Positions 9,999 through 22,204 of a stretch of DNA of 22,204 nucleotides are shown in pieces (the first letter of the stretch is position 1; each line of letters starts with the position of its first letter). The stretch lies in the IMG/VR virus record IMGVR_UViG_3300030099_001113, positions 1 through 22,204 of that record; one strand, given 5' to 3'. The stretch comes from a virus. The notes beneath the pieces are model-generated. The model was not told the origin of the DNA, made no database searches, and saw only the letters and a program-made list of their open reading frames with translations. Made by a program: the position numbers and the translations under genes.

Positions 9999-11684
9999 AT
10001 GGCTACGTTTCGTAGCAATGAAAACCCCATGTTTCGCTCAAAATTCAGCGAAGATATCTTCAAACATAAATATGCTCATCATAGTTGTGAGACTTGGGAT
10101 GCACTAGCATCAACTCTTGTTGATGACGTGTGTCAGGATTATCTGTCCAAGGATGATAAAGATGAGCTAAAACGTATGATCACTGACCTTAAATTTATTC
10201 CGGGTGGTCGATATCTTTATTATGCTGGTCGTGATAACAAGTTCTTTAACAACTGTTATCTTCTACGTGCAGAGGAAGACACCAGAGAAAATTGGGCAGA
10301 CATCTCTTGGAAGGCTGAGTCGTGCCTGATGACAGGTGGCGGCATTGGAGTAGACTACTCTGTTTATCGTGAAGAAGGCCGTCTTCTAAACGGTACAGGT
10401 GGACTAGCGTCTGGTCCTATTCCAAAGATGCAGATGGTCAACGAGATTGGTCGCAGGGTTATGCAGGGCGGTAGTCGTAGGTCTGCTATCTATGCTAGCT
10501 TAAACTGGAAGCATCCTGATGTAGACAAATTTCTTACTAGCAAAAACTGGTACGATATGCCAGTAGGAGACACGGGCTTTAGTATTGGTCAGGTTAAAGA
10601 GCAGGACTTTAATTTTATTGCTCCTCTTGATATGACAAACATCAGTGTAAACTATGATACAGAATGGTTACTTAATTATTGGAGGACAGGAGATGTTGGG
10701 AGTACTTTTAAGCAGAATGTTAGACAAGCCTTATCTACCGCCGAACCGGGGTTCTCGTTCAATTTCTTCGAGAAGGAAAATGAGACGTTACGGAACGCTT
10801 GTACGGAGGTTACATCTGAGGATGATAGTGACGTGTGCAATCTTGGGTCTATTAATATGGGACGTATTGATAACCTGAAAGATTTTTCTGATTGTGTAGA
10901 GCTTGCTACTAAGTTTCTGTTATGTGGCACACTCAGAGCCAAGCTTCCCTACGAAAAGGTATATAGAGTTAGAGAGAAGAACCGTAGGCTGGGCCTTGGC
11001 CTGATGGGTATGCATGAATGGTTAATCAAAGGAGGACACAAGTATGAAGTCACTGATGGTCTTCACAAGTGGCTGGCCGTCTATAAAGGCGTCAGCGACA
11101 ATACTAGTCGTTCACTGGCTGATAGCCTTTCAATTTCTCGTCCTGTGGCTAATCGGGCTATCGCCCCCACCGGAAGCATTGGCATACTGGCTGGCACCAG
11201 TACTGGTGTTGAGCCTATATTTGCAGTGGCGTATAAGCGCAGGTATCTAAAGGGAGGCAATCGCTGGCACTATCAGTATGTGGTAGACAGTGCAGCGCAA
11301 GAGATCATTGATCTTTATGGTGTTGCTCCTAATAAGATTGAGTCCGCTCTTGATCTGGCAGAAGACTATAAACGTCGTATGAAGTTTCAAGCTGACGTTC
11401 AAGACTATGTCGATATGTCCATCAGTAGTACTATTAATCTTCCTAAGTGGGGAACTAAACTTAATAATGAAGATACCGTCGATAGTTTTTCTGAAACTCT
11501 TGCTTCTTATGCTCACCGCTTACGTGGTTTCACGGTATATCCAGACGGTTGTAGGGGTGGGCAACCTTTGACATCCGTTCCCTACTCTGAGGCTGTAGAT
11601 AAGCTGGGTGAAGAGTTTGAAGAGAGTGTCGAGACGCATGACATATGCGACATTACTGGACACGGTGGAAGCTGCGGAGTATAA
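9999..11684 (+). CDS. adenosylcobalamin-dependent (class II) ribonucleotide reductase
   Basis: This enzyme reduces ribonucleotides to deoxyribonucleotides using vitamin B12, supplying dNTPs for phage replication without oxygen or a small subunit. Key sites: C86 (FNNCYLL), active-site pattern N266-A-C268-T-E270 with C268 the likely thiyl radical, C280 (SDVCNLGSIN), the loop APTGSIGILAGTSTGVEPIF (389-408) and the C-terminal redox pair C550/C559 (CDITGHGGSC). At 561 aa it is well under the roughly 740 aa of the monomeric Lactobacillus enzyme, and no ATP cone is seen. Short forms occur in marine phages. ATAAAGGAGA precedes the ATG. Adenosylcobalamin must come from the host, which fits B12-making marine alphaproteobacteria (inference). 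Confidence 0.93.
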   Translation: MATFRSNENPMFRSKFSEDIFKHKYAHHSCETWDALASTLVDDVCQDYLSKDDKDELKRMITDLKFIPGGRYLYYAGRDNKFFNNCYLLRAEEDTRENWADISWKAESCLMTGGGIGVDYSVYREEGRLLNGTGGLASGPIPKMQMVNEIGRRVMQGGSRRSAIYASLNWKHPDVDKFLTSKNWYDMPVGDTGFSIGQVKEQDFNFIAPLDMTNISVNYDTEWLLNYWRTGDVGSTFKQNVRQALSTAEPGFSFNFFEKENETLRNACTEVTSEDDSDVCNLGSINMGRIDNLKDFSDCVELATKFLLCGTLRAKLPYEKVYRVREKNRRLGLGLMGMHEWLIKGGHKYEVTDGLHKWLAVYKGVSDNTSRSLADSLSISRPVANRAIAPTGSIGILAGTSTGVEPIFAVAYKRRYLKGGNRWHYQYVVDSAAQEIIDLYGVAPNKIESALDLAEDYKRRMKFQADVQDYVDMSISSTINLPKWGTKLNNEDTVDSFSETLASYAHRLRGFTVYPDGCRGGQPLTSVPYSEAVDKLGEEFEESVETHDICDITGHGGSCGV

Positions 11685-11690
11685 TAAATT

Positions 11691-12149
11691 ATGGCATTAG
11701 TTAGCTTAACTCAGAAAACGGCATGGGTTATTGACGACGATCCTGTTCGTCCTGAGTTAAGCTATGCCTTTAGAACATCAGAGGACAGACACGGTTACGT
11801 TCTTTTAAATGATTTTAATGGAAACATTGAAGCAGCTTGCTGTACCGCAATGTGCTCTTCAGTTCCCAAAACAGTTGAAGAACTGTCTAACTTTTCTGTA
11901 AAAGAAAATACTAGAAACATAGCTGTTTTTTATACTTTATGGTCCTATGCGCGTGGAGCAGGTAGACAAATACTATTTGATATCTATTACGACATAAAAA
12001 ATCACAGACCTTCAGTAGATCGTTTTGTAACTCTTAGTCCCAAGACAGAGGTGGCAGAAAAGTTTCACACGTCAAATGGTGCTATTGTTCTTAGTCGTAA
12101 TGAAGAGAGCGATAACTATGAGTACGTTGAAAGAAAGTTATTTCAATGA
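11691..12149 (+). CDS. conserved phage protein, possibly GNAT-like acetyltransferase fold
   Basis: A 152-residue protein with an N-terminal WVIDDDPVRPELSYAFR, a central AVFYTLWSYARGAGRQILFDIYYDI (about 78-102) and a C-terminal VTLSPKTEVAEKFHTSNGA (about 112-130). The last pattern, 'LSPxTExAxxFHxxNGA', with the preceding G-x-G-R-x-I helix looks like motifs A and B of GNAT acetyltransferases, and I recall similar marine phage proteins. The acceptor is unknown and the fold call is tentative. It lies 6 nt after the reductase stop and overlaps the oxygenase start by 4 nt (ATGA), so it belongs to the same operon. Confidence 0.65.
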   Translation: MALVSLTQKTAWVIDDDPVRPELSYAFRTSEDRHGYVLLNDFNGNIEAACCTAMCSSVPKTVEELSNFSVKENTRNIAVFYTLWSYARGAGRQILFDIYYDIKNHRPSVDRFVTLSPKTEVAEKFHTSNGAIVLSRNEESDNYEYVERKLFQ

Positions 12150-12709
12150 ATATTCAAGAAGTTTGGAAAAGTGAGAGTGCTCTGTCAGAGGAGTTTTGCG
12201 ACAATCTTGTTCGACTCGGTAAAGAAACAAATCATGAATATGGTTTTGTAAATAAAGATACTTTAAAGACAACTGTTAGAAATAGCAGGGTAGCTTGGAT
12301 AAATAATCCAGAACTTACTGAAGTATTTTACAAGTGCATTATTCTTGCCAATCAAGAAGCTGGCTGGAACTTCGATATAGGCTCAGTAGAAGTTATGCAG
12401 TTCTCTACGTACTATGAGAGGGGTCACTACGGCTGGCACACGGACATAGAGAACTCATTCGACCCCGCAAAAGTTAGAAAGCTTTCGCTGGTTGTATCTT
12501 TAAATGATGACTATGAGGGCGGTGAGTTTCAGTTTAGCTGGGGCAAGCCGTCCAAGAGTTATCAGAAACGTATCATTGACTGCCCTGAATTAAAAAAGAA
12601 GGGAAGCATTGTTGTCTTCCCCTCTTTTCTTTGGCATCGTGTGAAGCCAGTTTTATATAATGAAAAGCATTCTATTGCTCTTTGGGCTTATGGTCCTGCT
12701 TTTCGGTAA
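12146..12709 (+). CDS. 2-oxoglutarate/Fe(II)-dependent oxygenase (prolyl hydroxylase-like)
   Basis: A 187-residue double-stranded beta-helix dioxygenase of the prolyl-4-hydroxylase-like type. Iron ligands are H98-x-D100 (GWHTD) and H164 (LWHRV). LSLVVSLNDDYEGGEFQF (113-130) is the family core strand region. The usual 2-oxoglutarate-binding Arg (RxS) appears as K174-H-S176, and Lys is used there by collagen-type hydroxylases. Phage members are common but their substrates are mostly unknown: protein side chains, nucleobases or small molecules. Position after the reductase hints at nucleotide or host metabolism, but this is weak. Its 3' end overlaps a convergent minus-strand gene by 38 nt, and no terminator hairpin is seen. 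Confidence 0.87.
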   Translation: MNIQEVWKSESALSEEFCDNLVRLGKETNHEYGFVNKDTLKTTVRNSRVAWINNPELTEVFYKCIILANQEAGWNFDIGSVEVMQFSTYYERGHYGWHTDIENSFDPAKVRKLSLVVSLNDDYEGGEFQFSWGKPSKSYQKRIIDCPELKKKGSIVVFPSFLWHRVKPVLYNEKHSIALWAYGPAFR

Positions 12710-12998: not shown

Positions 12999-13406
12999 TT
13001 ACTTTTTCAAGTTTTCTCTAGCAACCCCTTTCATTTTCTCAAATGATCTCATTCCGCCAAGTCCAAGTAAAGACATAAGAAGCGTCATGAGTGCTTGTGT
13101 ATCCAGTGCAGGAAGTTCGATAACAGGATACCAGATAGCAAAGCCCCAGCTAGCTATCGGAGCTATGATAAACTGCCACGCTAATGCAAAGGCGCATATC
13201 CACATGATAGCTGGTCTAGCTCCGCTGACAAAGAGAGAGGGATGCTTCGCCTGTTCTATGTTCGCTTGTGCTTGAGCAAGATCAAGAGATACTAACTGTG
13301 TTTTTAGCTCATGATCTAGTTTTTTTCGTAGGTCTTTATCTTCTACAAACTTATCTAAAACTTTACCGGCAACTCCGATTACGGAATCTGCAATACCTAA
13401 AACCAT
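12999..13406 (-). CDS. 3TM holin (GTA_holin_3TM-like)
   Basis: A 135-residue protein matching the holin family first described next to gene transfer agents: an N-terminal amphipathic part (VIGVAGKVLDKFVEDKDLRKKL), the family-specific KHPSLFVSGARPAIMWIC (54-71), then two clear membrane spans (about 66-95 and 100-117). Residues 1-16 are moderately hydrophobic and may form the third span. It would assemble in the inner membrane and open it at lysis time, letting the murein hydrolase out. Its ATG overlaps the stop of the preceding gene by one base (TAATG). The matching endolysin is not adjacent; the only candidate is at 1982-2446. Confidence 0.85.
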   Translation of the reverse strand: MVLGIADSVIGVAGKVLDKFVEDKDLRKKLDHELKTQLVSLDLAQAQANIEQAKHPSLFVSGARPAIMWICAFALAWQFIIAPIASWGFAIWYPVIELPALDTQALMTLLMSLLGLGGMRSFEKMKGVARENLKK

Positions 13407-13768
13407 TAGTCTGCCTTTCTTGTATCTGACACAGGCGGATGTGCGCCATTGTGCATGTGATAGAGCCTATCATAGCTTTTTTCTAAGTTTTTTATAGTTG
13501 TTAGTATTTCAGATAACTGCATGTGATCACGCCTGAGATTTTCTGGACTTGCCAGTTTAGCTAATACACTAATTCTTTGTTCTTGTGTTTCTGTAGAGGT
13601 ATGCAGCCTGTCATAATTACTATCCATCTTTCTTAAACGCTGCTCTACATCCTCTAGTTTATCTACTAATTGTTTAATCTGAATCTTTGCAACAGCGGAT
13701 GCCCCTGCAACACTAAACAGTATTCCGCCCAGAGTTATGACCAAACGTAAATCAATCGCCCCTTCCAT
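13406..13768 (-). CDS. membrane-anchored coiled-coil protein (120 aa)
   Basis: This 120-residue protein has one N-terminal membrane span (LRLVITLGGILFSVAGASAV, 8-27) followed by a long charged helix with heptad spacing (VDKLEDVEQRLRKMDSNYDRL) and a second helical stretch (EILTTIKNLEKSYDRL). I recall similar proteins encoded beside 3TM holins in Rhodobacteraceae phages. It may be a lysis accessory or spanin-like protein, but no outer-membrane partner or lipoprotein is visible. Spacing to both neighbours is tight (1-nt gap upstream, 1-nt overlap downstream), so the three membrane genes form one translation unit. Confidence 0.72.
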   Translation of the reverse strand: MEGAIDLRLVITLGGILFSVAGASAVAKIQIKQLVDKLEDVEQRLRKMDSNYDRLHTSTETQEQRISVLAKLASPENLRRDHMQLSEILTTIKNLEKSYDRLYHMHNGAHPPVSDTRKAD

Positions 13769-13769
13769 T

Positions 13770-14060
13770 TTATTTAATTCTATTCATTAGCGCTTCTTCA
13801 ATTTTAGGAAGAAGGCGTATGCCACAATATCCAATAACAAAGGCCAAACCAATAGCAACTTGATCATTAAACTTAAAATGGCTCATGGCTGCAGGAATTA
13901 GAAACTCTGCTGCAATCCATCCAACGATAATTGCAATTAAAATATCTTTAATAGCTCCTAAATTCCATTTTTTCTGTGTAAGTACGTTTGCTAATCCACC
14001 GCATCCCGAAGCAAAAATACAACACAGTTTTCCACCGAATGTCATAATAGCCCATTCCAT
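13770..14060 (-). CDS. small multi-span membrane protein, second holin-like
   Basis: A 96-residue hydrophobic protein with three likely membrane segments: about 10-27 (Gly/Cys-rich), 37-57 (KDILIAIIVGWIAAEFLIPAA) and 66-85 (VAIGLAFVIGYCGIRLLP). It ends in a short charged tail (KIEEALMNRIK). The size and three-span layout are those of phage holins of the LydA-like kind. Together with the GTA-type 3TM holin, the phage would have two pore proteins, or one could be an antiholin. AAGGAGAT, 8 nt before the ATG on the minus strand, is a strong ribosome binding site. Family assignment is tentative. Confidence 0.68.
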   Translation of the reverse strand: MEWAIMTFGGKLCCIFASGCGGLANVLTQKKWNLGAIKDILIAIIVGWIAAEFLIPAAMSHFKFNDQVAIGLAFVIGYCGIRLLPKIEEALMNRIK

Positions 14061-14093: not shown

Positions 14094-14387
14094 TTAGTCC
14101 ATTATGTCTAATGTATTTATTAAATCTTGTTTAATTCTATCAAGTTGAATATATACGGCGCTTACAGTCAATGCTCCGAAAAACCAATCGTGCATTGATC
14201 CATCTTCTTCGAACGCAAGAAATACGCCTCCCTTTATTTTATCATTTTCTGCCACTATTTCAAAAATCTTGTTCATAGACTCAACTACAGTAGCGTGAGC
14301 CTGTTCATCAAGACCTTCGTCAGTATTTTTATTAGGAGGAAGAGCTATAAAATTACTAGGAAAATCAACGATATTGTCATCAGACAT
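14094..14387 (-). CDS. hypothetical protein (97 aa)
   Basis: A 97-residue acidic soluble protein starting MSDDNIVDFPSNFIALPP. The middle is helical (EQAHATVVESMNKIFEIVAENDKI) and followed by a strand-like segment (GGVFLAFEEDGSMHDWFFG). No membrane span or catalytic motif is seen. Its start overlaps the end of the large fusion gene by 8 nt, with GGAGA 7 nt upstream, giving coupled translation. I recall similar short proteins in alphaproteobacterial phages without function. Confidence 0.68.
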   Translation of the reverse strand: MSDDNIVDFPSNFIALPPNKNTDEGLDEQAHATVVESMNKIFEIVAENDKIKGGVFLAFEEDGSMHDWFFGALTVSAVYIQLDRIKQDLINTLDIMD

Positions 14388-16695
14388 TCAGTATCTCCGT
14401 GTAATGAGGTTTAATGTATCCGTTAGATACTCGGTCTTTCCATATAGCGTTTACTAGTCCACCACAATGCATGTTCAGCGTCATGTCCACTGATTTATTA
14501 TCAAGCATTTGTTCCATGTCCTGAGCCATCGCTAGCAACTCACCCGTGACCCAGAACTTCTCTTTCTCTTCTCCAATGCCAACCTTAATCCATTTAGGAC
14601 TGCCGCTTTCAAGAAGCTCTTCCTTGTCTTCAGGCTCTCCTTCAATACAGGCATCAAAGCCGAACAGATCAAAGTTACGAAAACCAAGAACATGAAACAA
14701 ACCGATAGCTCTGGTAGCTGCACACGTTCCACCTGCAATCAACATAGTATCTCTGAGAAGCGGCCAATTCTGAATAGCCTGAGAGAACGCATCCCAACCG
14801 TAAACATTGTCAGTCTTACTTAGAATGTAATCAACAGCAGTGACATCCGTCATCGACGCAACAAAGAACTTTGTCTTTTCAGGAATATTCTTGAAGAGAT
14901 CACGCCTCTTTACGCCGTGCGTAGATACCCCGTCAATCGGTCTAGGATCGAGCACAATGCACCCCCAAGGGATGATGCCCTTTTTGACCAGCACCGGAAG
15001 AGAGTGCTTAACACAGACCACCTTAGAACGCTTTTCAGCCACTATCTGTTTTAGCTTATCTATATTCTTTTTAAGAGAGGGACCACCAGAAACAATACAC
15101 ATATGCTCGTTGTTTGGAGCACCTGCTTGCTTGACCCATCTTTTTATTTTATTTTTATTAGCTGTAATACTCTCCTGAATATATTCATCAGGCATTGAAT
15201 CGTGAGGCGTTACCTTGATGGGAGTACGGTTCTGTACAGGAGAAAGCGTCATCTCAGGAAGATCAGGCAGCTTGTCAGTATGAAGAACAGCTACAAGATT
15301 AGTGATACCGCCGCCCAGAACTCTATCGTTTGATGTCAGAATTTTCTTTCGTGCGGCGTCATCTATGAGATTGTCATATACGTGGTTTGTGCCACACATT
15401 TCTAAATCAACTTCTTTACCCTCTTCATCGGCAGTAAAGTAGTCATCAATGATCACAAACGGAACATGCTTCAGCATTTCATAGTCTGAAGAACACGTCT
15501 GTATGCTGTGACCTCCATCGATGTAAGCAAAGTCAGGGTGAATATTATGAGTATTGCTAAAGTCTGTGTCGTGTATCAGCTTTAGAGTTTCTTTTGAATC
15601 TCCTGCATACAGACAAAAAGTAAAAGTCTTACCATCTTCTTTTGCCTTTTTAGCAAACTCAGTTAGCTTTTCTTCAACCTGTTCTTTAGTGTGATGTGCT
15701 TTCGTATTAAGTTCTGCTTTATCCGTTTCTTCTGTGGCATAATCAAACAGATCAAAACCAGTGTAGTGAACAACATCCGATTTAGCGAACGCTGCAGATG
15801 CCATTTGTATAGCTCTATCACCATTCCACGTTCCTACTTCAAGAAGATTTTTTCTTTCATAAAAGGCAACAAGAGAATTAATATAAGCATATCGCTGCGG
15901 ACCCACTGGCATCGCAGGTATCTGATTTGCTTGGTCTTGTTTATTATACTTTAGATTACCCTTCTTGTGCTCCAAAAACTTACCAAGCTCGCTGGTAGCA
16001 AAAGCATTTAGATCAGTGCAATCAGGCGACATGTTGTAAACATTCAAGCCATGCTCTTCATGAATGTTCAACAAGCGCGTAAAGACAAAGCCATCGTGCC
16101 ACTCTCTGTATCCAAACACTTCATGGCTCGTGTACATTCCACGAAAGTCAGATAGAAACTCAAGAGTACGAGTAGAGTTTAGATTGAAGGACAGAAAAGA
16201 AGTTTCACTGTAGTCGATAGCAGTGCGGCCTAGATGTACGACTTCTGCTTCTTCGTTAGGTGCAGCAAAGTTTACGATGTCCGACCAACTCATGTAATCT
16301 TTTGATACAGTATCTGCATCTAGCCATACGAGATAACCACCCTCATTTTCAAGGCCCATCTTTTCATTAGCAAATGCTGAGTTTGTAATAGCAAAAACCT
16401 TGTGACAAAACTTTATCACGTCCATACGGTAGTTGTAGCCGCCGTTAGGTTCTTTACCGTTATACTCAGCATTATCGTTCTTAAAAGTTGTGAGGTCTTC
16501 ATCACTGTCTAAGGAAAAGTAAGAAACGTTTGGTGCATCAGGAGCGTCTTCAGGCAGTTCTCCGTTATGATAGTAAAGCCGAAGCTCTATAGTGCTTTCC
16601 CATTTGTCTATAAAGCTTTCAACAAAATTCTTAGCGTAAACTTCCCAATCTTTTACGTGAAAGCTAGAAACAATAGTAACTTTTTTCGATGTCAT
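14380..16695 (-). CDS. three-domain fusion: glycosyltransferase / SAM methyltransferase / DUF115 (Maf-like)
   Basis: A 771-residue protein with three enzyme-like parts. Residues 1-255 resemble a nucleotide-sugar glycosyltransferase with metal-binding D126-A-D128 (YLVWLDADTV). Residues 260-475 look like a class I SAM-dependent methyltransferase (Methyltransf_24-like): motif I LLEVGTWNGD (284-293), FAYIDGGHS (389-397) and VIIDDYF (413-419). Residues 500-771 match DUF115/MptE-like, the domain of Maf flagellin-glycosylation proteins: CIVSGGPSL (533-541), GGTCAATRAIG (655-665) and LFGFDAC (677-683). It follows the GT8-like gene with a 1-nt gap, so both act together, perhaps on virion or host surface glycans. 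Substrate and the activity of each part are inference. Confidence 0.8.
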   Translation of the reverse strand: MTSKKVTIVSSFHVKDWEVYAKNFVESFIDKWESTIELRLYYHNGELPEDAPDAPNVSYFSLDSDEDLTTFKNDNAEYNGKEPNGGYNYRMDVIKFCHKVFAITNSAFANEKMGLENEGGYLVWLDADTVSKDYMSWSDIVNFAAPNEEAEVVHLGRTAIDYSETSFLSFNLNSTRTLEFLSDFRGMYTSHEVFGYREWHDGFVFTRLLNIHEEHGLNVYNMSPDCTDLNAFATSELGKFLEHKKGNLKYNKQDQANQIPAMPVGPQRYAYINSLVAFYERKNLLEVGTWNGDRAIQMASAAFAKSDVVHYTGFDLFDYATEETDKAELNTKAHHTKEQVEEKLTEFAKKAKEDGKTFTFCLYAGDSKETLKLIHDTDFSNTHNIHPDFAYIDGGHSIQTCSSDYEMLKHVPFVIIDDYFTADEEGKEVDLEMCGTNHVYDNLIDDAARKKILTSNDRVLGGGITNLVAVLHTDKLPDLPEMTLSPVQNRTPIKVTPHDSMPDEYIQESITANKNKIKRWVKQAGAPNNEHMCIVSGGPSLKKNIDKLKQIVAEKRSKVVCVKHSLPVLVKKGIIPWGCIVLDPRPIDGVSTHGVKRRDLFKNIPEKTKFFVASMTDVTAVDYILSKTDNVYGWDAFSQAIQNWPLLRDTMLIAGGTCAATRAIGLFHVLGFRNFDLFGFDACIEGEPEDKEELLESGSPKWIKVGIGEEKEKFWVTGELLAMAQDMEQMLDNKSVDMTLNMHCGGLVNAIWKDRVSNGYIKPHYTEILNV

Positions 16696-16696
16696 C

Positions 16697-17494
16697 TTAT
16701 AAGCTGCCCTTAGAAGAGATAATGCTTGTCTTTAAGTACAAAGCATCTTTGTAGTTTTTAAACCATTCGTCGGCAAATGGAACTTCTTTGTATTCAGGAA
16801 ACCAAGGACCGCCCTCAGAAAAGTGAACAGCTTTGATGTTGACGCCTTCTTGTTCTGCTTTCTCGGTATTAACAGAGATGCCCGGAATAAAGTTCCATCC
16901 TTCGTTTATCTCACCAATCTCCTCATCTTTCAACCAACTGAAAGAGTGTAGACTAGCACCCGTAGCTTGATTAGTTTTAATAGGATCAAGGATAGGTTTA
17001 TTGGACGGATGTCCTACGTTCCACAAGACAAAAGAAGACCAGAGCTTTCTTGGATAAGCACTCTGAACCATGCCATCCATCTTCTTTTTATTTTTTTTAG
17101 GAGTGAAATCAAACTTGACACACATTGCTGCGTACTTATCGTCAACCTGTTCGAACAGGCTATTGAGCGGTGCTCTGAACATGAAGTCACAGTCGCAGAA
17201 AAGAATCCAACCATCTTCTGCGCAATGATATTTAGCCATGTAGGGAGCTAGAAAACGAGAGTGAGAAAACTCTGTAGAAAAAGGCTTACCATCTTCTTCG
17301 TCCCAGTACTGACCATCCTCATCGATGAGCCACCTACGAGAAAACCAGTTGTAACGACGAAGCATTCTATGATCTAGTTTATAAACTCCGACATCTACAC
17401 CGTTATACTTTTTTAAAGTAAACTCACAGACATCGTAGGCTTCTTGTTCACGAGAGTCATAGCCCACATACACACTATACTTTGGCAGTGACAT
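16697..17494 (-). CDS. GT8-like glycosyltransferase
   Basis: A 265-residue putative glycosyltransferase of GT-A fold, closest to family GT8 by pattern. It begins YSVYVGYDSREQEAYDVCEF, has EFSHSRFLAPYMAKY (75-89) and then DGWILFCDCDFMF (94-106) with metal-binding D101-C-D103. Late motifs NEGWNFIPG and AVHFSEGGPWF resemble the sugar-acceptor side of GT8 enzymes. It would move a sugar from a nucleotide donor; the acceptor is unknown. No membrane segment is seen, so it is cytoplasmic. The gene follows a near-consensus minus-strand promoter (17528-17556), while its own ribosome binding site is weak (AGGG about 12 nt upstream). It is paired with the downstream fusion enzyme. Confidence 0.82.
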   Translation of the reverse strand: MSLPKYSVYVGYDSREQEAYDVCEFTLKKYNGVDVGVYKLDHRMLRRYNWFSRRWLIDEDGQYWDEEDGKPFSTEFSHSRFLAPYMAKYHCAEDGWILFCDCDFMFRAPLNSLFEQVDDKYAAMCVKFDFTPKKNKKKMDGMVQSAYPRKLWSSFVLWNVGHPSNKPILDPIKTNQATGASLHSFSWLKDEEIGEINEGWNFIPGISVNTEKAEQEGVNIKAVHFSEGGPWFPEYKEVPFADEWFKNYKDALYLKTSIISSKGSL

Positions 17495-17560: not shown

Positions 17561-20500
17561 TTATTCGCTGTATGCTGCTTCTCCAAGAATACGAGTAAGC
17601 AGTTCAGGACGCACTGCTTTTGGAACACGGGGTCCGGTACTGTAGCCAAATGGTTCCATTGCTCGCATCACTCGGTTCATCGGCGTTTTCGGATTAATTC
17701 GATACTGACGAGAAGGCTCCATAATATTATCAAAGTCATGCTGCATAGTGTGCAGAAAGTCTGTGTAATATTTAGCTAGGAAGTTAGCGGCGGAGTCACC
17801 GTCGCCTCTTTGAGCGGCTGCTAGATAAGCACCTAGATTTTTAGACATTCTATTTGTGTAAACATCTTTGCCTACCTTAGAACGATAAGACAGATAGTTC
17901 TCAAGACCTCTTCTTTCTCTAGCACGGGATACAGTAGTAGGCGTAAATCCAAATGTTTTCATAAGACGTTCTGTTCTAGACAGAGAATCTGCAGGTAATA
18001 GCTGCTGTCCTCTTGCCGTAAACGTACCCACTGATGGTTCTTTTACTAGAGCATCGTAAGCATTACGTGCAGCGATAGGCATTACGCCAACAGCAGCGCC
18101 AAGAAGATCACCATTGTTGTAAGCTTCCTTTGTTCCCTTTACCATGTCTACTGCACGAGAAATAGCAGGACCAGCAAAGTCAACAGGATCGCCACCCATT
18201 AACAATCGTATTGGAGCAACATCACCGTAACCAGTACGACGCGATACGTCTGCACCCAGCATTCTAGGAATACCGCGAAGAAGCGCATCAGTTGCCGTAT
18301 ATCCCATTGTTTCGCCAAGAGTTACCCGAAGCTCTTCTTCAAAGTCTTCTCCGACCTGATCACCAAACTGCTCTGTAAAGAACTTGATAAGCTCTTTTAG
18401 ATTTTCCATAAACGGAAGACCCATAGCACCGCCAAACGCCATCATAGAAAGCGTCATGGCTGCTAACTGCTTCATAGCTATCTTACGTGCAGCAGGGCGA
18501 AGAGGCTCTGGAATAGCATCCATACGTCCATTCAGAGACTTGAAGAGCGCGTCACCGTACATTCCAACCATCTGATACAGGAAGCTTTGAAACTGAGTTA
18601 CAACACTCATAACTGGACCCTGCATAATAGCAGGACGGTTCTCTTGGCCCATGAAGAACTGTGTCTTTTCGACACCCATTGTTCCCATCAGTTTAGCAAA
18701 GTCTTCAGTGTCTAACCCAGAGACATCCTGATCACCAAAGCGAGTGCCGCTTACGAATGCTTCAAAGTTCTTACGGTTCTTGGGGTCTTTAGCAGCACGA
18801 TAGAAAGCGAGAGCCGCTGCAATACGGTTAGTGTTTTCGACAACACCAAAAGCATAGCCAGAAGCGTTAAGCACAGGAGCAACACCACGCCTGACATCTA
18901 GCTCTTGAAGACGAGCCGCGCCCAAGTCAATGTTCTGAATCGGCTGAATAACACCAGTTCTAAATAGCTCTGCCAGATACCTGTATTCTTCTTCTGTAAC
19001 AGAGTCAGGTTTTTTATCCATGTCTACTTCGACGCTGACCGTACCATCAGGAGCCGTCGTAGTTTTAAAGAACGAGAAGCCGTACTCACCTACTGAAGGT
19101 TTGTCTTTTGATCCAAGCATCTTGCCGTACAAAGCAGATGAATCTTTTAGAGCTTTCGCAACATACACACCGCCGCTACCCAATCCGGTAATAGCACCTA
19201 GAACAGGATAGGTAGCTTGGAAAGTCTGCGTCAAGTTGACTAGAGCAGATGAAACATTAAAGCCAAGGAACATATGGAAAGCAAAGGCACGAGCCATAGG
19301 AGCTTCGTTTCTTGGATTATTTACATAATCATATATTTCTTTAGCTCTATCATGATACTTAGGTTGAGTACCTCTAGCAGCTTCTAGATCAGTCAAGCTT
19401 CCAAAAAGTTCAGGCTCTGTAAACAAAGAAGAGGCAGTGTTTGCTGTAGTATCGATAGACCTAACAAAAGAATCAAGAAGATAGGCACCATCGTTATTTC
19501 TTGAATTGATGTAACCCGGAATATTCTGCCGTGGCTGTATCAATCTATTAATACGCTTTTTAAAAAGACCATTAGCAATTTCATCTATAAGCGTACTAGC
19601 ATCGTCTGAAGTAGTTCCTGCTTTTCTCAAAGCTATTTCTTCAAGAATGTTTAAGGACTCAAGCAGTGCAGCCTGTTCTTCTGGTTTAAGTCCTCTAAAT
19701 GTTTTCTTATTTTTATCGTATTCAATTTTAAATGGATCACTTACAGTCATGCCCGGATACTGAGCCTGTAGTTCTAAACGAATTTCGTTCAGCCTTTCCT
19801 TTTTTCTTGAGCCAAAGCGATCTAAGAAAGTAGAAGAAACAGTTTCAAAGTATACAACATCACCGTCTTTATTTCTTACTATGATACCAGTATCGCCATA
19901 ACGATAGTTAGGAAAATAACCGTCTTTTCTGCTTGCTAATAGCTCTTGAACAAGTTGAATAGCATCATTTAATTTTTCAAATTTTTCAGGTTTAGCTAAA
20001 TACTCTTCTTTTAGCCCCGGAAATGCTGCTTTCTTTTCTTCTATCGTTGCGTTTTTAAAACTATCTTTTATTCTAATATAAGAACTTCCGTCGTCTTCTT
20101 TAACTCTTTCTAAGAATGGATTATTATCTACATCTAAAAACTTGCGAAGATCAGCAATTACATTGTTGTAATCAGCGGGTTGTCCAGCATCATCTACAGT
20201 TCGAATGATGTCAGCAAGACCAGACTCTTTCAGTTCTCTGCCGTTTATGAAAGAGTGAAGAATGGAGGTAAACAAATTATTACTAAGAAAATTACTAGTA
20301 GAACGTACACCAGCTACAGCATTAGCAACTTCAGGCTGACCTGACAGGGTAAACGTAACTCCTTCTTCTCTTTTCTGTATTGAAACTGTTGATGGATCAA
20401 CGCCAAGCATAGACAAAAATCTATCTTCTGTTCCGTATTCAGCTTCTATTCCATCATATCTTGTTTGTGGTATAGAAACTTCAACAGTTCCATTTTCAAT

Positions 20501-22204
20501 GTCTATCGTTGGCTCAACTTCACCATTATTAGCAAGCTGAATCATTACAGACGTTAGCTGTCGTTGATCACGATTAAGAGCACGTAAAGGTTCTGCACCT
20601 ATCTTAACTGATGCACCTTTAATAATGTTACGTATCTGTACACGTTTCTGAAGCGTGTTATAGAAAGCACGAAACAGTGGATTCTTCTGCGCTAGATCAG
20701 AGGGATGAGAAATAAGACGACCCATGAAACCAAGATCACGCAAGGAGTTGTTAAAGAACCCATCTTTAAATGGATTAGCAACGCCACCAAAGCCCGGAGT
20801 TCTCTTGATAGGAGCACCTACCAGTGCTTCATAGTTAGGCGCAGCATTTATACCTGCGTACTTTTTCAGAGCCTGATCATCCAAACGTCCTGCTTGTCTT
20901 GCTAGCTCACCACTATCAAAGTCTTCAAAGAGTTTTTTAACCTGTTCAATCTCTGATGTAGCATCTAGGTCAACTATCTTCTTAATAAAGCCTTCGCCCC
21001 GCGCCCAGCTAGACACTGCATCAAAGAAATCTTTAAGTGTTTTTAGCCGCCGTCTAACCGGAGCTTGCATTCCTTTGATTGGAACACCCGCTGCCCACAG
21101 AGAAAAGATTTGAGCCTGTGCCTCTTCCAAACGATGCTCTGGAGAATAAGCGTCAAACCACTCTTTTGATACTCCATTTCTGATAGCAAACTCAGGCGTG
21201 ATAACTCTGTCGAGCAACGCCTGATCATCCTGAGTAAGAACTAAACGCTTACCAGCATGAAACGCTTCATGATAAGTAACACCAAGAAGCCTTGAATAAT
21301 CATTAAAGCTTTCAGGAAAACCGTGTTCGCTGGTGGGAAGACTTGTTGTCTGAATAGCTATTCTTGTTGGAACACCTTGACGACCATCATAATCTCCACC
21401 AACTTCTACATAACCATATGGAGTTTTTACAAAAGGCTGTTCACCTTCTTTATCAAATCTAATAGTAGCAGCGCCTAAAGTATTTCTAGCTAGATACTTA
21501 TTAGCTTCTTGACCTATGTAGATAGCTATCTCTTCTGCACGATCCGCTCTTATTGGTCCTACCATTCTAAGAATAGCGTTCTTTAAGTTTTGTATAGCAG
21601 CACTATCGACAACGCCATCTGTAGCCGTCTTTTGATCTGTAATCATAACATTCTCAAAAGACGTTACATCTTTAATGTTACCATCTCCAAGATACTGACC
21701 AACTTCTCCTTTTGCATATGCATCTAGAAAGTTTTTAAATTCTTTGGCGTAAGGTTTAGCTCTTGCCCTTGAATAACCGCTTAACAAGTTTGATCCATCA
21801 GCATCAACCAACACACCAGAGTTTGTCAATGCTGCAACATTTACTCTTCCGTCTGGTCTTCTGAAACTTTCTATTGCAGCTTCAAAATCTTGAGCGCCTT
21901 CCTGATCTGATCCAAACACACCAACAATTCTAGCAAAGTCTTTTTTGATATCTCTAATGGTTTGCTGTGCTGCTGCATTAGGTTGTTTTTCTTGAGCAGG
22001 TAGCTTGTTAGGATCAGTAGTCGTTCCAGTGGGAGAAGGTGTTACTTCTTGTGCTGCATCAGGTTCACCTTCAGTAGTCGTTCCAGTGGCAGGAGGTGTT
22101 ACTTCTTCTGTTACATCAGGTTCTACTACAACCTCTTCTTCAGGTGCTGCTTCAGGTTCTGCTTCAGGTTCTGCTTCAGGTTCTGCTTCAGGTGCTGCTT
22201 CAGG
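17561..22204 (-). CDS. giant internal-virion/polyvalent-type protein with HExxH metallopeptidase motif (5' end beyond window)
   Basis: At least 1547 codons are open to the window edge, so the start is not here; the GTG at 21919 is internal. Order from the visible N-terminus: Pro-Glu-Ala low-complexity region; a metallopeptidase-like domain with GVTYHEAFHAGKR (H217 and H221 counted from the GTG at 21919) and, 45 residues on, RLEEAQAQIFS, which could give the third zinc ligand; a long middle part; hydrophobic stretches around residues 870-920 and 1147-1172; and a charged C-terminus. Size, domain mix and late position resemble podoviral internal virion proteins and the 'polyvalent' proteins that enter the host with phage DNA. 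It might be injected and cut host proteins, which is inference. Whether the HExxH site is active needs structure prediction. Confidence 0.75.
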   Translation of the reverse strand, partial: PEAAPEAEPEAEPEAEPEAAPEEEVVVEPDVTEEVTPPATGTTTEGEPDAAQEVTPSPTGTTTDPNKLPAQEKQPNAAAQQTIRDIKKDFARIVGVFGSDQEGAQDFEAAIESFRRPDGRVNVAALTNSGVLVDADGSNLLSGYSRARAKPYAKEFKNFLDAYAKGEVGQYLGDGNIKDVTSFENVMITDQKTATDGVVDSAAIQNLKNAILRMVGPIRADRAEEIAIYIGQEANKYLARNTLGAATIRFDKEGEQPFVKTPYGYVEVGGDYDGRQGVPTRIAIQTTSLPTSEHGFPESFNDYSRLLGVTYHEAFHAGKRLVLTQDDQALLDRVITPEFAIRNGVSKEWFDAYSPEHRLEEAQAQIFSLWAAGVPIKGMQAPVRRRLKTLKDFFDAVSSWARGEGFIKKIVDLDATSEIEQVKKLFEDFDSGELARQAGRLDDQALKKYAGINAAPNYEALVGAPIKRTPGFGGVANPFKDGFFNNSLRDLGFMGRLISHPSDLAQKNPLFRAFYNTLQKRVQIRNIIKGASVKIGAEPLRALNRDQRQLTSVMIQLANNGEVEPTIDIENGTVEVSIPQTRYDGIEAEYGTEDRFLSMLGVDPSTVSIQKREEGVTFTLSGQPEVANAVAGVRSTSNFLSNNLFTSILHSFINGRELKESGLADIIRTVDDAGQPADYNNVIADLRKFLDVDNNPFLERVKEDDGSSYIRIKDSFKNATIEEKKAAFPGLKEEYLAKPEKFEKLNDAIQLVQELLASRKDGYFPNYRYGDTGIIVRNKDGDVVYFETVSSTFLDRFGSRKKERLNEIRLELQAQYPGMTVSDPFKIEYDKNKKTFRGLKPEEQAALLESLNILEEIALRKAGTTSDDASTLIDEIANGLFKKRINRLIQPRQNIPGYINSRNNDGAYLLDSFVRSIDTTANTASSLFTEPELFGSLTDLEAARGTQPKYHDRAKEIYDYVNNPRNEAPMARAFAFHMFLGFNVSSALVNLTQTFQATYPVLGAITGLGSGGVYVAKALKDSSALYGKMLGSKDKPSVGEYGFSFFKTTTAPDGTVSVEVDMDKKPDSVTEEEYRYLAELFRTGVIQPIQNIDLGAARLQELDVRRGVAPVLNASGYAFGVVENTNRIAAALAFYRAAKDPKNRKNFEAFVSGTRFGDQDVSGLDTEDFAKLMGTMGVEKTQFFMGQENRPAIMQGPVMSVVTQFQSFLYQMVGMYGDALFKSLNGRMDAIPEPLRPAARKIAMKQLAAMTLSMMAFGGAMGLPFMENLKELIKFFTEQFGDQVGEDFEEELRVTLGETMGYTATDALLRGIPRMLGADVSRRTGYGDVAPIRLLMGGDPVDFAGPAISRAVDMVKGTKEAYNNGDLLGAAVGVMPIAARNAYDALVKEPSVGTFTARGQQLLPADSLSRTERLMKTFGFTPTTVSRARERRGLENYLSYRSKVGKDVYTNRMSKNLGAYLAAAQRGDGDSAANFLAKYYTDFLHTMQHDFDNIMEPSRQYRINPKTPMNRVMRAMEPFGYSTGPRVPKAVRPELLTRILGEAAYSE
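22016..22129. repeat. two tandem copies of a 57-bp unit inside the giant gene
   Basis: Units at 22016-22072 and 22073-22129 both begin AGTAGTCGTTCCAGTGG and share GGTGTTACTTCTT. They encode a 19-residue Thr/Pro-rich linker unit (EVTPxxTGTTT). This looks like an in-frame duplication within a disordered region. Confidence 0.7.
22139..22204. repeat. 12-bp tandem repeats (TTCAGGTtCTGC) at the right edge
   Basis: About 5.5 copies of a 12-bp unit start at 22139, 22151, 22163, 22175, 22187 and 22199, the last cut by the window end. On the minus strand they encode Pro-Glu-Ala-Glu/Ala repeats in the N-terminal part of the giant protein, a likely extended linker. Copy number may vary by slippage. Confidence 0.8.

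What the first reader, a model, noticed from the sequence alone, without database searches (positions are those of the whole stretch)
14380..16695. Single phage protein joining a glycosyltransferase, a methyltransferase and a DUF115/Maf-like domain
Three enzyme-like domains in a row in a 771-aa late phage protein, directly after a second glycosyltransferase, suggest a dedicated glycan-building and capping machine. DUF115 is the domain of Maf proteins, which glycosylate flagellin with nonulosonic acids. A phage version could decorate virion proteins or change host flagella or envelope sugars to block superinfection or aid adsorption. I do not recall a described system with this exact architecture.
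Basis: partly seen in the sequence, partly recalled or inferred. Interest (0 to 1): 0.65.

Follow-up and report, generated by a model that had tools for sequence, protein, structure and literature searches.

The report
Phage three-part sugar-chain building enzyme
A marine virus of bacteria carries two adjacent, tightly linked genes whose proteins look able to build a small sugar chain, methylate it and perhaps cap it; hundreds of other ocean viruses carry the same pair, but no cultured virus has the three-part protein and what it sugar-coats is unknown.

Summary
On the minus strand, 14380-16695 encodes a 771-aa protein with three real domains: a GT-A glycosyltransferase, a COMT/Methyltransf_24-type O-methyltransferase, and a DUF115 (PF01973, MptE-like/Maf) domain. 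An AlphaFold model matches a solved structure for each part. All three domains are under strong purifying selection, and their catalytic-type motifs are almost invariant across about 60 relatives. The gene is one base from a second, GT8-like glycosyltransferase (16697-17494). That partner is immediately upstream in 58 of 58 non-redundant full-length relatives with an upstream ORF, usually overlapping, so the unit is an obligate two-gene cassette. At least 403-518 uncultured viral contigs carry parts of it. Of 50,697 phage records none has the fusion; the literature searched does not describe it. The methyltransferase is a removable module: the tree needs about 6 gains/losses.

Best reading: a cytoplasmic glycan-building, methylating and capping machine, fed by host sugar nucleotides and used late, most likely on virion proteins. 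The acceptor and the DUF115 reaction are inferred, and remodelling of host envelope sugars is a close rival. DNA hypermodification is disfavoured. A flagellin target has no support; full-length Maf/PseD membership is not met. This is a new variant of a known kind.

The parts
14380..16695 (-). 771-aa trimodular protein (P0001): GT-A glycosyltransferase - O-methyltransferase - DUF115/MptE-like
15946..16695 (-). Domain 1, residues ~1-250: GT-A glycosyltransferase, GT6-like fold, DXD = D126/D128, EWHDGF = 198-203
   Evidence: fold match to bovine alpha-1,3-galactosyltransferase (5nre, TM 0.47 on target, 12% id); motif conservation in 61 rows
15262..15903 (-). Domain 2, residues ~265-478: class I SAM O-methyltransferase (EVGTWNG motif I; IDGGH 392-396 and DDY 416-418, metal-ligand-like)
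   Evidence: PF13578 above cut-off; COMT/Rv0187/TrmR folds; weak profile hits to O-methyltransferases incl. 6g7d
14425..15228 (-). Domain 3, residues ~490-757: DUF115 / MptE-like / Maf domain (SGGPS, LDPRP, STHG, GGTCA, GFD, TGEL...QD)
   Evidence: PF01973 67.3 bits; folds 8sd5 (TM 0.66 on target) and 5mu5; NCBIfam PseD partial; profile hit to 5mu5 E=0.0078
16697..17494 (-). 265-aa GT8-like glycosyltransferase (P0002, 'GTb'), obligate upstream partner
   Evidence: phrog_28018 unknown; pLDDT 92.6 model, WbbM/GlyE/GT8/UGGT/LgtC folds; immediately upstream in 58/58
17561..22204 (-). C-terminal 1547 residues of the large structural/internal-virion-type protein that precedes the cassette (2198 aa in the longer record); context, not part of the cassette
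   Evidence: phrog_11358, DarB-like and weak internal virion protein hits
12999..14060 (-). Holin-like genes that follow the cassette on the same strand (12999-13406 GTA_holin_3TM; 13770-14060 holin-like; 13406-13768 coiled-coil/Rz-like); context

Best explanation
The two genes 16697-17494 and 14380-16695 form a translationally coupled glycan-assembly cassette. The proteins carry no obvious membrane segment and would act in the infected cell's cytoplasm on host-made sugar nucleotides. The GT8-like enzyme and the GT6-like domain would each add one sugar (both DXD, metal-dependent, retaining by fold). The O-methyltransferase domain would methylate a sugar hydroxyl, and the DUF115 domain would add a terminal acidic sugar, most plausibly from a host CMP-activated keto-sugar such as CMP-Kdo. 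Carrying several steps on one chain would let the glycan pass from site to site. The most likely acceptor is a newly made virion protein, as Maf enzymes glycosylate flagellin in the cytoplasm before assembly, giving sugar-coated particles. SHOWN here: domain identities, conservation, purifying selection, coupling, late-module position, modular methyltransferase. INFERRED: every reaction, the donors, the order of steps and the acceptor.
For: Three domains by HMM and fold; catalytic-type residues nearly or fully invariant in 48-61 non-redundant members; dN/dS 0.04-0.06 per domain. GTb immediately upstream, same strand, in 58/58, mostly overlapping. Holin, small terminase or the large structural gene lie on the same strand within six ORFs in 49/60 loci. 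Split versions keep the company: pelagiphage Mosig has separate methyltransferases, the GT, GTb and a sulfotransferase in one run, and Caulobacter phage CcrColossus has tail protein - DUF115 protein - ... - GTb - GT9 - lysis genes. Methyltransferase and GT are also fused, in reversed order, in two marine alphaproteobacterial MAGs. Maf enzymes can use CMP-Kdo (PMC11339370) and modify flagellin before export (PMC4065374, title and abstract). No DNA-modification route found.
Against: No acceptor, donor or product is known. In 27 of 60 loci a ribonucleotide reductase gene lies on the same strand near the cassette, so it is not purely a structural-operon gene. No CMP-sugar synthetase in 37 records, so a CMP donor would have to come from the host. 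The DUF115 fold is equally that of the pterin pyrophosphokinase MptE (8sd5), so its reaction is not settled. The inter-domain arrangement in the model is uncertain (pTM 0.43).
Confidence: 0.45

Rival explanations
1. Same enzymes, but the acceptor is a host envelope glycan (LPS core, capsule or lipid-linked precursor). The phage remodels the cell surface to block superinfection or to stop released progeny from sticking to debris.
For: GT8-like enzymes such as LgtC and WbbM, among the best folds for P0002, build LPS; FkbM methyltransferase, UDP-sugar dehydrogenase, epimerase and C-methyltransferase genes follow the cassette in L024; KdsA/KdsB lie near a GTb relative in cyanophage S-SCSM2R; fused GT-methyltransferase chain terminators exist in O-antigen systems (PMC11231755); relatives sit in bacterial chromosomes.
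Against: Late-module position rather than early; none of the neighbouring genes scanned looked like a flippase, lipid carrier or gtrA/B-type gene; no coiled-coil ruler in the protein.
Confidence: 0.33
2. The DUF115 domain is not a sugar transferase but a catalytically different or purely binding module (for example an acceptor-binding or MptE-like pyrophosphokinase remnant), and only the two GTs and the methyltransferase build the glycan.
For: MptE 8sd5 is a good fold match beside the Maf structure; no CMP-sugar genes; sequence similarity to Maf is faint (5mu5 E=0.0078).
Against: Over 30 DUF115 positions are invariant in 36 sequences, including motifs beyond the Pfam core; dN/dS 0.04; PseD is the only NCBIfam match; it is kept in every full-length member while the methyltransferase is not.
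Confidence: 0.15
3. DNA hypermodification: the GTs glycosylate hydroxymethylated bases of the phage genome.
For: Phage glycosyltransferases often do this; a 2OG-Fe(II) oxygenase gene lies nearby (12146-12709; 15/60 loci on the same strand).
Against: 0 of 37 related records hold a thymidylate-synthase/hydroxymethylase family gene and only 3 of 37 a C5 DNA methylase; the oxygenase hit is to the prolyl-hydroxylase-like PF13640 family; a DUF115 domain has no known role there.
Confidence: 0.04
4. Flagellin modification of the host, as a phage-borne Maf.
For: DUF115/PseD similarity.
Against: PseD full-length score 32.7 against a cut-off of 670; Maf lacks the GT6-like and intact methyltransferase domains; nearest isolate relatives infect Pelagibacter, which lacks flagella (own knowledge), or roseobacters.
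Confidence: 0.03

Closest known systems
Maf/PseD flagellin glycosyltransferases (structure 5mu5; PMC11339370)
   Same: Share the PF01973 (Maf_flag10/DUF115) domain; Maf also has an N-terminal Rossmann-like domain with weak methyltransferase resemblance before it; cytoplasmic protein glycosylation.
   Different: The phage protein has an intact, motif-complete O-methyltransferase and a GT-A domain in front, no Maf C-terminal helical region recognised, no flagellar context, and fails the full-length PseD model.
Multimodule O-antigen polymerase/terminator proteins, e.g. Klebsiella O7 ORF6 and WbdD (PMC11231755)
   Same: Methyltransferase and glycosyltransferase modules on one chain for building and ending a glycan.
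   Different: No coiled-coil ruler, no kinase domain recognised, no ABC transporter genes seen; different domain order and a DUF115 module.
Phage-encoded virion glycosylation (mycobacteriophages, Freeman 2023, cited in PMC12619734)
   Same: Phage glycosyltransferases decorating capsid and tail proteins would be the same kind of outcome.
   Different: Different phages; those enzymes are not known to carry methyltransferase or DUF115 domains (own knowledge; homology not tested here).
Split cassettes in cultured phages: Pelagibacter phage Mosig and Caulobacter phage CcrColossus
   Same: Mosig has relatives of the GT domain and GTb side by side with methyltransferases and a sulfotransferase; CcrColossus has a DUF115 protein and GTb between tail and lysis genes.
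   Different: All as separate genes; neither phage has the fusion, and neither has all four parts recognisable by these searches.
BFVD entry A0A6J7X5Q0 (uncultured Caudovirales phage, 714 aa)
   Same: Full-length structural alignment, 31% identity: apparently the same three-domain architecture.
   Different: Annotated only as a methyltransferase-domain protein; not characterised.

Membership tests
DUF115 / MptE-like (PF01973) | Score above the curated Pfam cut-off | tested here: met
   67.3 bits against 34.6, residues 518-685
DUF115 / MptE-like (PF01973) | Fold of MptE/Maf | tested here: met
   8sd5 (TM 0.66 on target) and 5mu5 among PDB matches
Maf/PseD flagellin glycosyltransferase | Full-length PseD/Maf model above cut-off | tested here: not met
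   NF050051 32.7 bits against 670; only residues 529-681 match
Maf/PseD flagellin glycosyltransferase | Nonulosonate (CMP-sugar) synthesis genes in the neighbourhood | tested here: not met
   PF02348 in 0 of 37 related viral records; records are partly fragments
Maf/PseD flagellin glycosyltransferase | Transfer of a nonulosonate to flagellin Ser/Thr | not testable with these tools
   needs enzyme assay
MptE 6-hydroxymethylpterin diphosphokinase | Pterin/ATP active site and pyrophosphokinase activity | tested here: inconclusive
   fold matches 8sd5 but active-site residues could not be superposed
COMT/Methyltransf_24 O-methyltransferase | Curated cut-off, SAM motif I and acidic metal-ligand-like positions conserved | tested here: met
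   30.6 bits against 26.3; E286, G288, G292, D393, G394, G395, D417 at 95-100% in 48 rows; COMT folds
GT6 (alpha-1,3-Gal/GalNAc transferases) | Fold and sequence relationship | tested here: inconclusive
   fold match to 5nre/1g93; no Pfam or PDB sequence match
GT8 (partner P0002) | Fold and DXD, sequence relationship | tested here: inconclusive
   WbbM/GlyE/GT8 folds; DXD D101/D103 invariant; weak profile hits 6u4b E=0.007, 5gvv E=0.028; no Pfam hit
O-antigen polymerase-terminator proteins (WbdD/ORF6-O7 type) | Coiled-coil molecular ruler | tested here: not met
   no long helix in the model; longest about 20 residues
Phage DNA-hypermodification glycosyltransferase systems | Base hydroxymethylase or C5-methylase plus oxidase genes in the genome | tested here: not met
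   PF00303 0/37, PF00145 3/37; TET/JBP family not searched

The most novel reading that the evidence does not exclude
A widespread group of marine phages carries a self-contained 'Maf-like' protein O-glycosylation and methylation machine that coats its own virions with a methylated glycan capped by a host-derived Kdo/nonulosonate-type sugar: a DUF115 enzyme acting on something other than flagellin, with the whole pathway packed into two coupled genes.
Probability: 0.25. Interest if true: 0.75.

Novelty: new variant of a known kind. Interest (0 to 1): 0.52.

Why it matters
If right, hundreds of uncultured marine phages make chemically elaborate, methylated glycans with a compact two-protein machine, so sugar-coated virions or late-infection envelope remodelling would be common in the ocean. 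It gives a definable enzyme set to test in vitro, a new context for the DUF115/Maf domain outside flagella, and a fused enzyme of possible use in glyco-engineering. It also shows that these genes, now annotated as 'methyltransferase' or 'MptE-like', are misleadingly named.

Tried and rejected
Chance or mis-called ORF: rejected by conservation and dN/dS. Only one real enzymatic domain: rejected, since each domain has its own fold match and conserved motifs. DNA hypermodification: searched hydroxymethylase and C5-methylase families in 37 records, essentially absent. Phage-made CMP-sugar donor: none found. Sequence matches of the GT domain to solved structures: none, so its family rests on fold. 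The DUF115 profile from 8 sequences found no PDB sequence relative; a 36-sequence profile found Maf 5mu5 only weakly. Methyltransferase lost from the fusion but supplied by a neighbour: only suggestive. Clear methyltransferase genes follow in L075, L097 and L024, and weakly in L021; the 301-304-aa gene that follows in the L050/L064 lineage has no Pfam match. Weak hits of the cassette's own methyltransferase model in L075/L097 neighbours were too short to count as the same domain. A search for a glycosylation-acceptor candidate by Ser/Thr/Pro content of phage proteins gave no decisive result. Literature searches for phage DUF115, phage MptE-like, and roseophage CRP-3 with glycosyltransferase found nothing relevant.

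Full report
WHAT IS THERE. The ORF is real, 771 aa, but on the minus strand; the finding gave no strand. The window is itself a 22,204-base IMG/VR viral record. A longer record of 56,058 bases holds an identical protein. In that record the cassette lies directly after a 2198-aa structural-type protein and before holin-like genes, all on the late strand with terminase, portal and capsid.

DOMAINS. Pfam gives PF01973 (formerly DUF115, now 'MptE-like') at 518-685 with 67.3 bits and PF13578 Methyltransf_24 at 285-410 with 30.6 bits, both above their cut-offs; the first 250 residues match nothing. An AlphaFold model built from 15 relatives (mean pLDDT 82; pTM 0.43, so the domain arrangement is uncertain) has solved-structure matches for each part: GT6-type alpha-1,3-galactosyltransferases and LARGE1 for the N-terminal part, COMT/Rv0187/TrmR for the middle, and the M. 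jannaschii MptE enzyme 8sd5 and the Maf glycosyltransferase 5mu5 for the end. The tool does not print aligned residues, so the assignment of matches to parts follows from target identity and length. The partner P0002 models very well (pLDDT 92.6) as a GT8-like GT-A enzyme, with WbbM, GlyE, LgtC and UGGT as neighbours. A profile of the middle domain reaches O-methyltransferases weakly, including 6g7d, which shares the IDGGH region; from my own knowledge 6g7d is a mycobacterial mannose O-methyltransferase.

CONSERVATION. Among non-redundant members, the DXD of the GT (D126, D128) with E198, W199, D201 and R207 is invariant. The methyltransferase keeps E286/G288 and G394-G395, with D393 and D417 at 95%. 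DUF115 keeps K563-H564, D583-P584-R585, S591-T592-H593-G594, G655-G656-T657, D681 and T717-G718-E719-L720. P0002 keeps its DXD and H224. dN/dS against a 97%-identical relative is 0.042, 0.060 and 0.044 for the three domains.

A TWO-GENE CASSETTE. Scans of viral contigs found 518 stretches encoding relatives of the DUF115 part and 403 of the GT part; the best 80 of each were kept. Over the loci held, ORFs are GT-MT-DUF (130) or GT-DUF (42), the rest mostly cut by contig ends. After removing near-copies at 90% identity there are 60 full-length proteins, 47 with and 13 without the methyltransferase; the GT8-like gene is immediately upstream on the same strand in all 58 that have an upstream ORF, generally with overlapping or near-touching ends. 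On a tree of GT+DUF115 sequences the methyltransferase's presence needs 6 changes, at least 5 forced by well-supported branches, so it is a repeatedly lost or gained module. Three of the 13 loci lacking it (two of the lineages) have clear stand-alone methyltransferase genes nearby; I treat this as suggestive only.

OUTSIDE THE FUSION. No record among 50,697 phage records has the fusion; only two match, both over the GT part. One is pelagiphage Mosig, where GT and GTb relatives sit in one run with two methyltransferases and a sulfotransferase. Caulobacter jumbo phage CcrColossus has a DUF115 protein (31.8 bits, just below the cut-off of 34.6), a GTb relative (44%) and a GT9 gene between a tail protein and lysis genes. 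In 84,980 prokaryote species only three matches to the GT part appeared, all marine alphaproteobacterial MAGs in chromosomal settings (a scan limited to two GT peptide patterns). Two are methyltransferase-GT fusions in reversed order. All three genomes also carry an unlinked GTb relative, against 15 of 142 in a sample of the class, several of those weak. The three genomes are related, so this is not an independent test.

MECHANISM. The simplest reading is a cytoplasmic assembly line for a short methylated glycan. Which sugar each GT uses and the order of steps are inferred. Maf enzymes work in the cytoplasm before flagellin export (PMC4065374, title and abstract seen) and can use CMP-Kdo (PMC11339370). 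Since these phages carry no CMP-sugar synthetase (0 of 37 records), a host donor such as CMP-Kdo is the most economical guess. Virion proteins are favoured as acceptor because 49 of 60 loci have holin, small terminase or the large structural gene on the same strand within six ORFs and because of the CcrColossus parallel. The rival, host envelope remodelling, is nearly as good. DNA modification lacks the needed genes.

HOST. Different markers point to marine Alphaproteobacteria: the reductase is 76% identical to roseophage CRP-3, the DNA polymerase is nearest to pelagiphages HTVC103P/104P (44%), and the terminase to HTVC023P and related phages. CRP-3 has the reductase next to oppositely oriented large genes and no annotated glycosyltransferase there.

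NOVELTY. The pieces are known kinds; the fusion with an obligate partner, its prevalence, and a DUF115 enzyme in this setting appear undescribed in the searched literature, though unnamed database entries exist. New variant of a known kind.

Noticed in passing
L194:8927-12496 (minus; 56-kb record related to the window): A 1189-aa protein matches portal protein over residues 161-612 and endolysin/lysozyme families over 1050-1188: an apparent portal-lysozyme fusion.
   Followed up: no
L188:7992-9488 and L189:1396-2895: Marine alphaproteobacterial MAGs carry the same methyltransferase and GT domains fused in the opposite order, in housekeeping chromosomal context; L190 has the GT alone.
   Followed up: partly
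L193 (Synechococcus phage S-SCSM2R): A GTb relative sits a few genes from kdsA and kdsB, i.e. phage-borne CMP-Kdo synthesis genes.
   Followed up: no
L064:6839-7744, L050:6836-7750 and relatives: A ~302-aa protein without any Pfam match overlaps the end of the GT-DUF115 gene in one lineage that lacks the methyltransferase domain; it may be a replacement enzyme.
   Followed up: partly
22010-22099 (minus): Pro/Thr-rich, mucin-like linker (TPPATGTTTEGEPDAAQEVTPSPTGTTTDP) in the structural protein just upstream of the cassette; a conceivable O-glycosylation site, but the TGTTT motif is not in L004.
   Followed up: partly
12146-12709 (plus): Prolyl-hydroxylase-like 2OG-Fe(II) oxygenase; a relative lies on the same strand near the cassette in 15 of 60 loci.
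   Followed up: partly
9999-11684 (plus): B12-type ribonucleotide reductase 76% identical to roseophage CRP-3, while DNA polymerase and terminase are closer to pelagiphages: a mosaic genome.
   Followed up: partly
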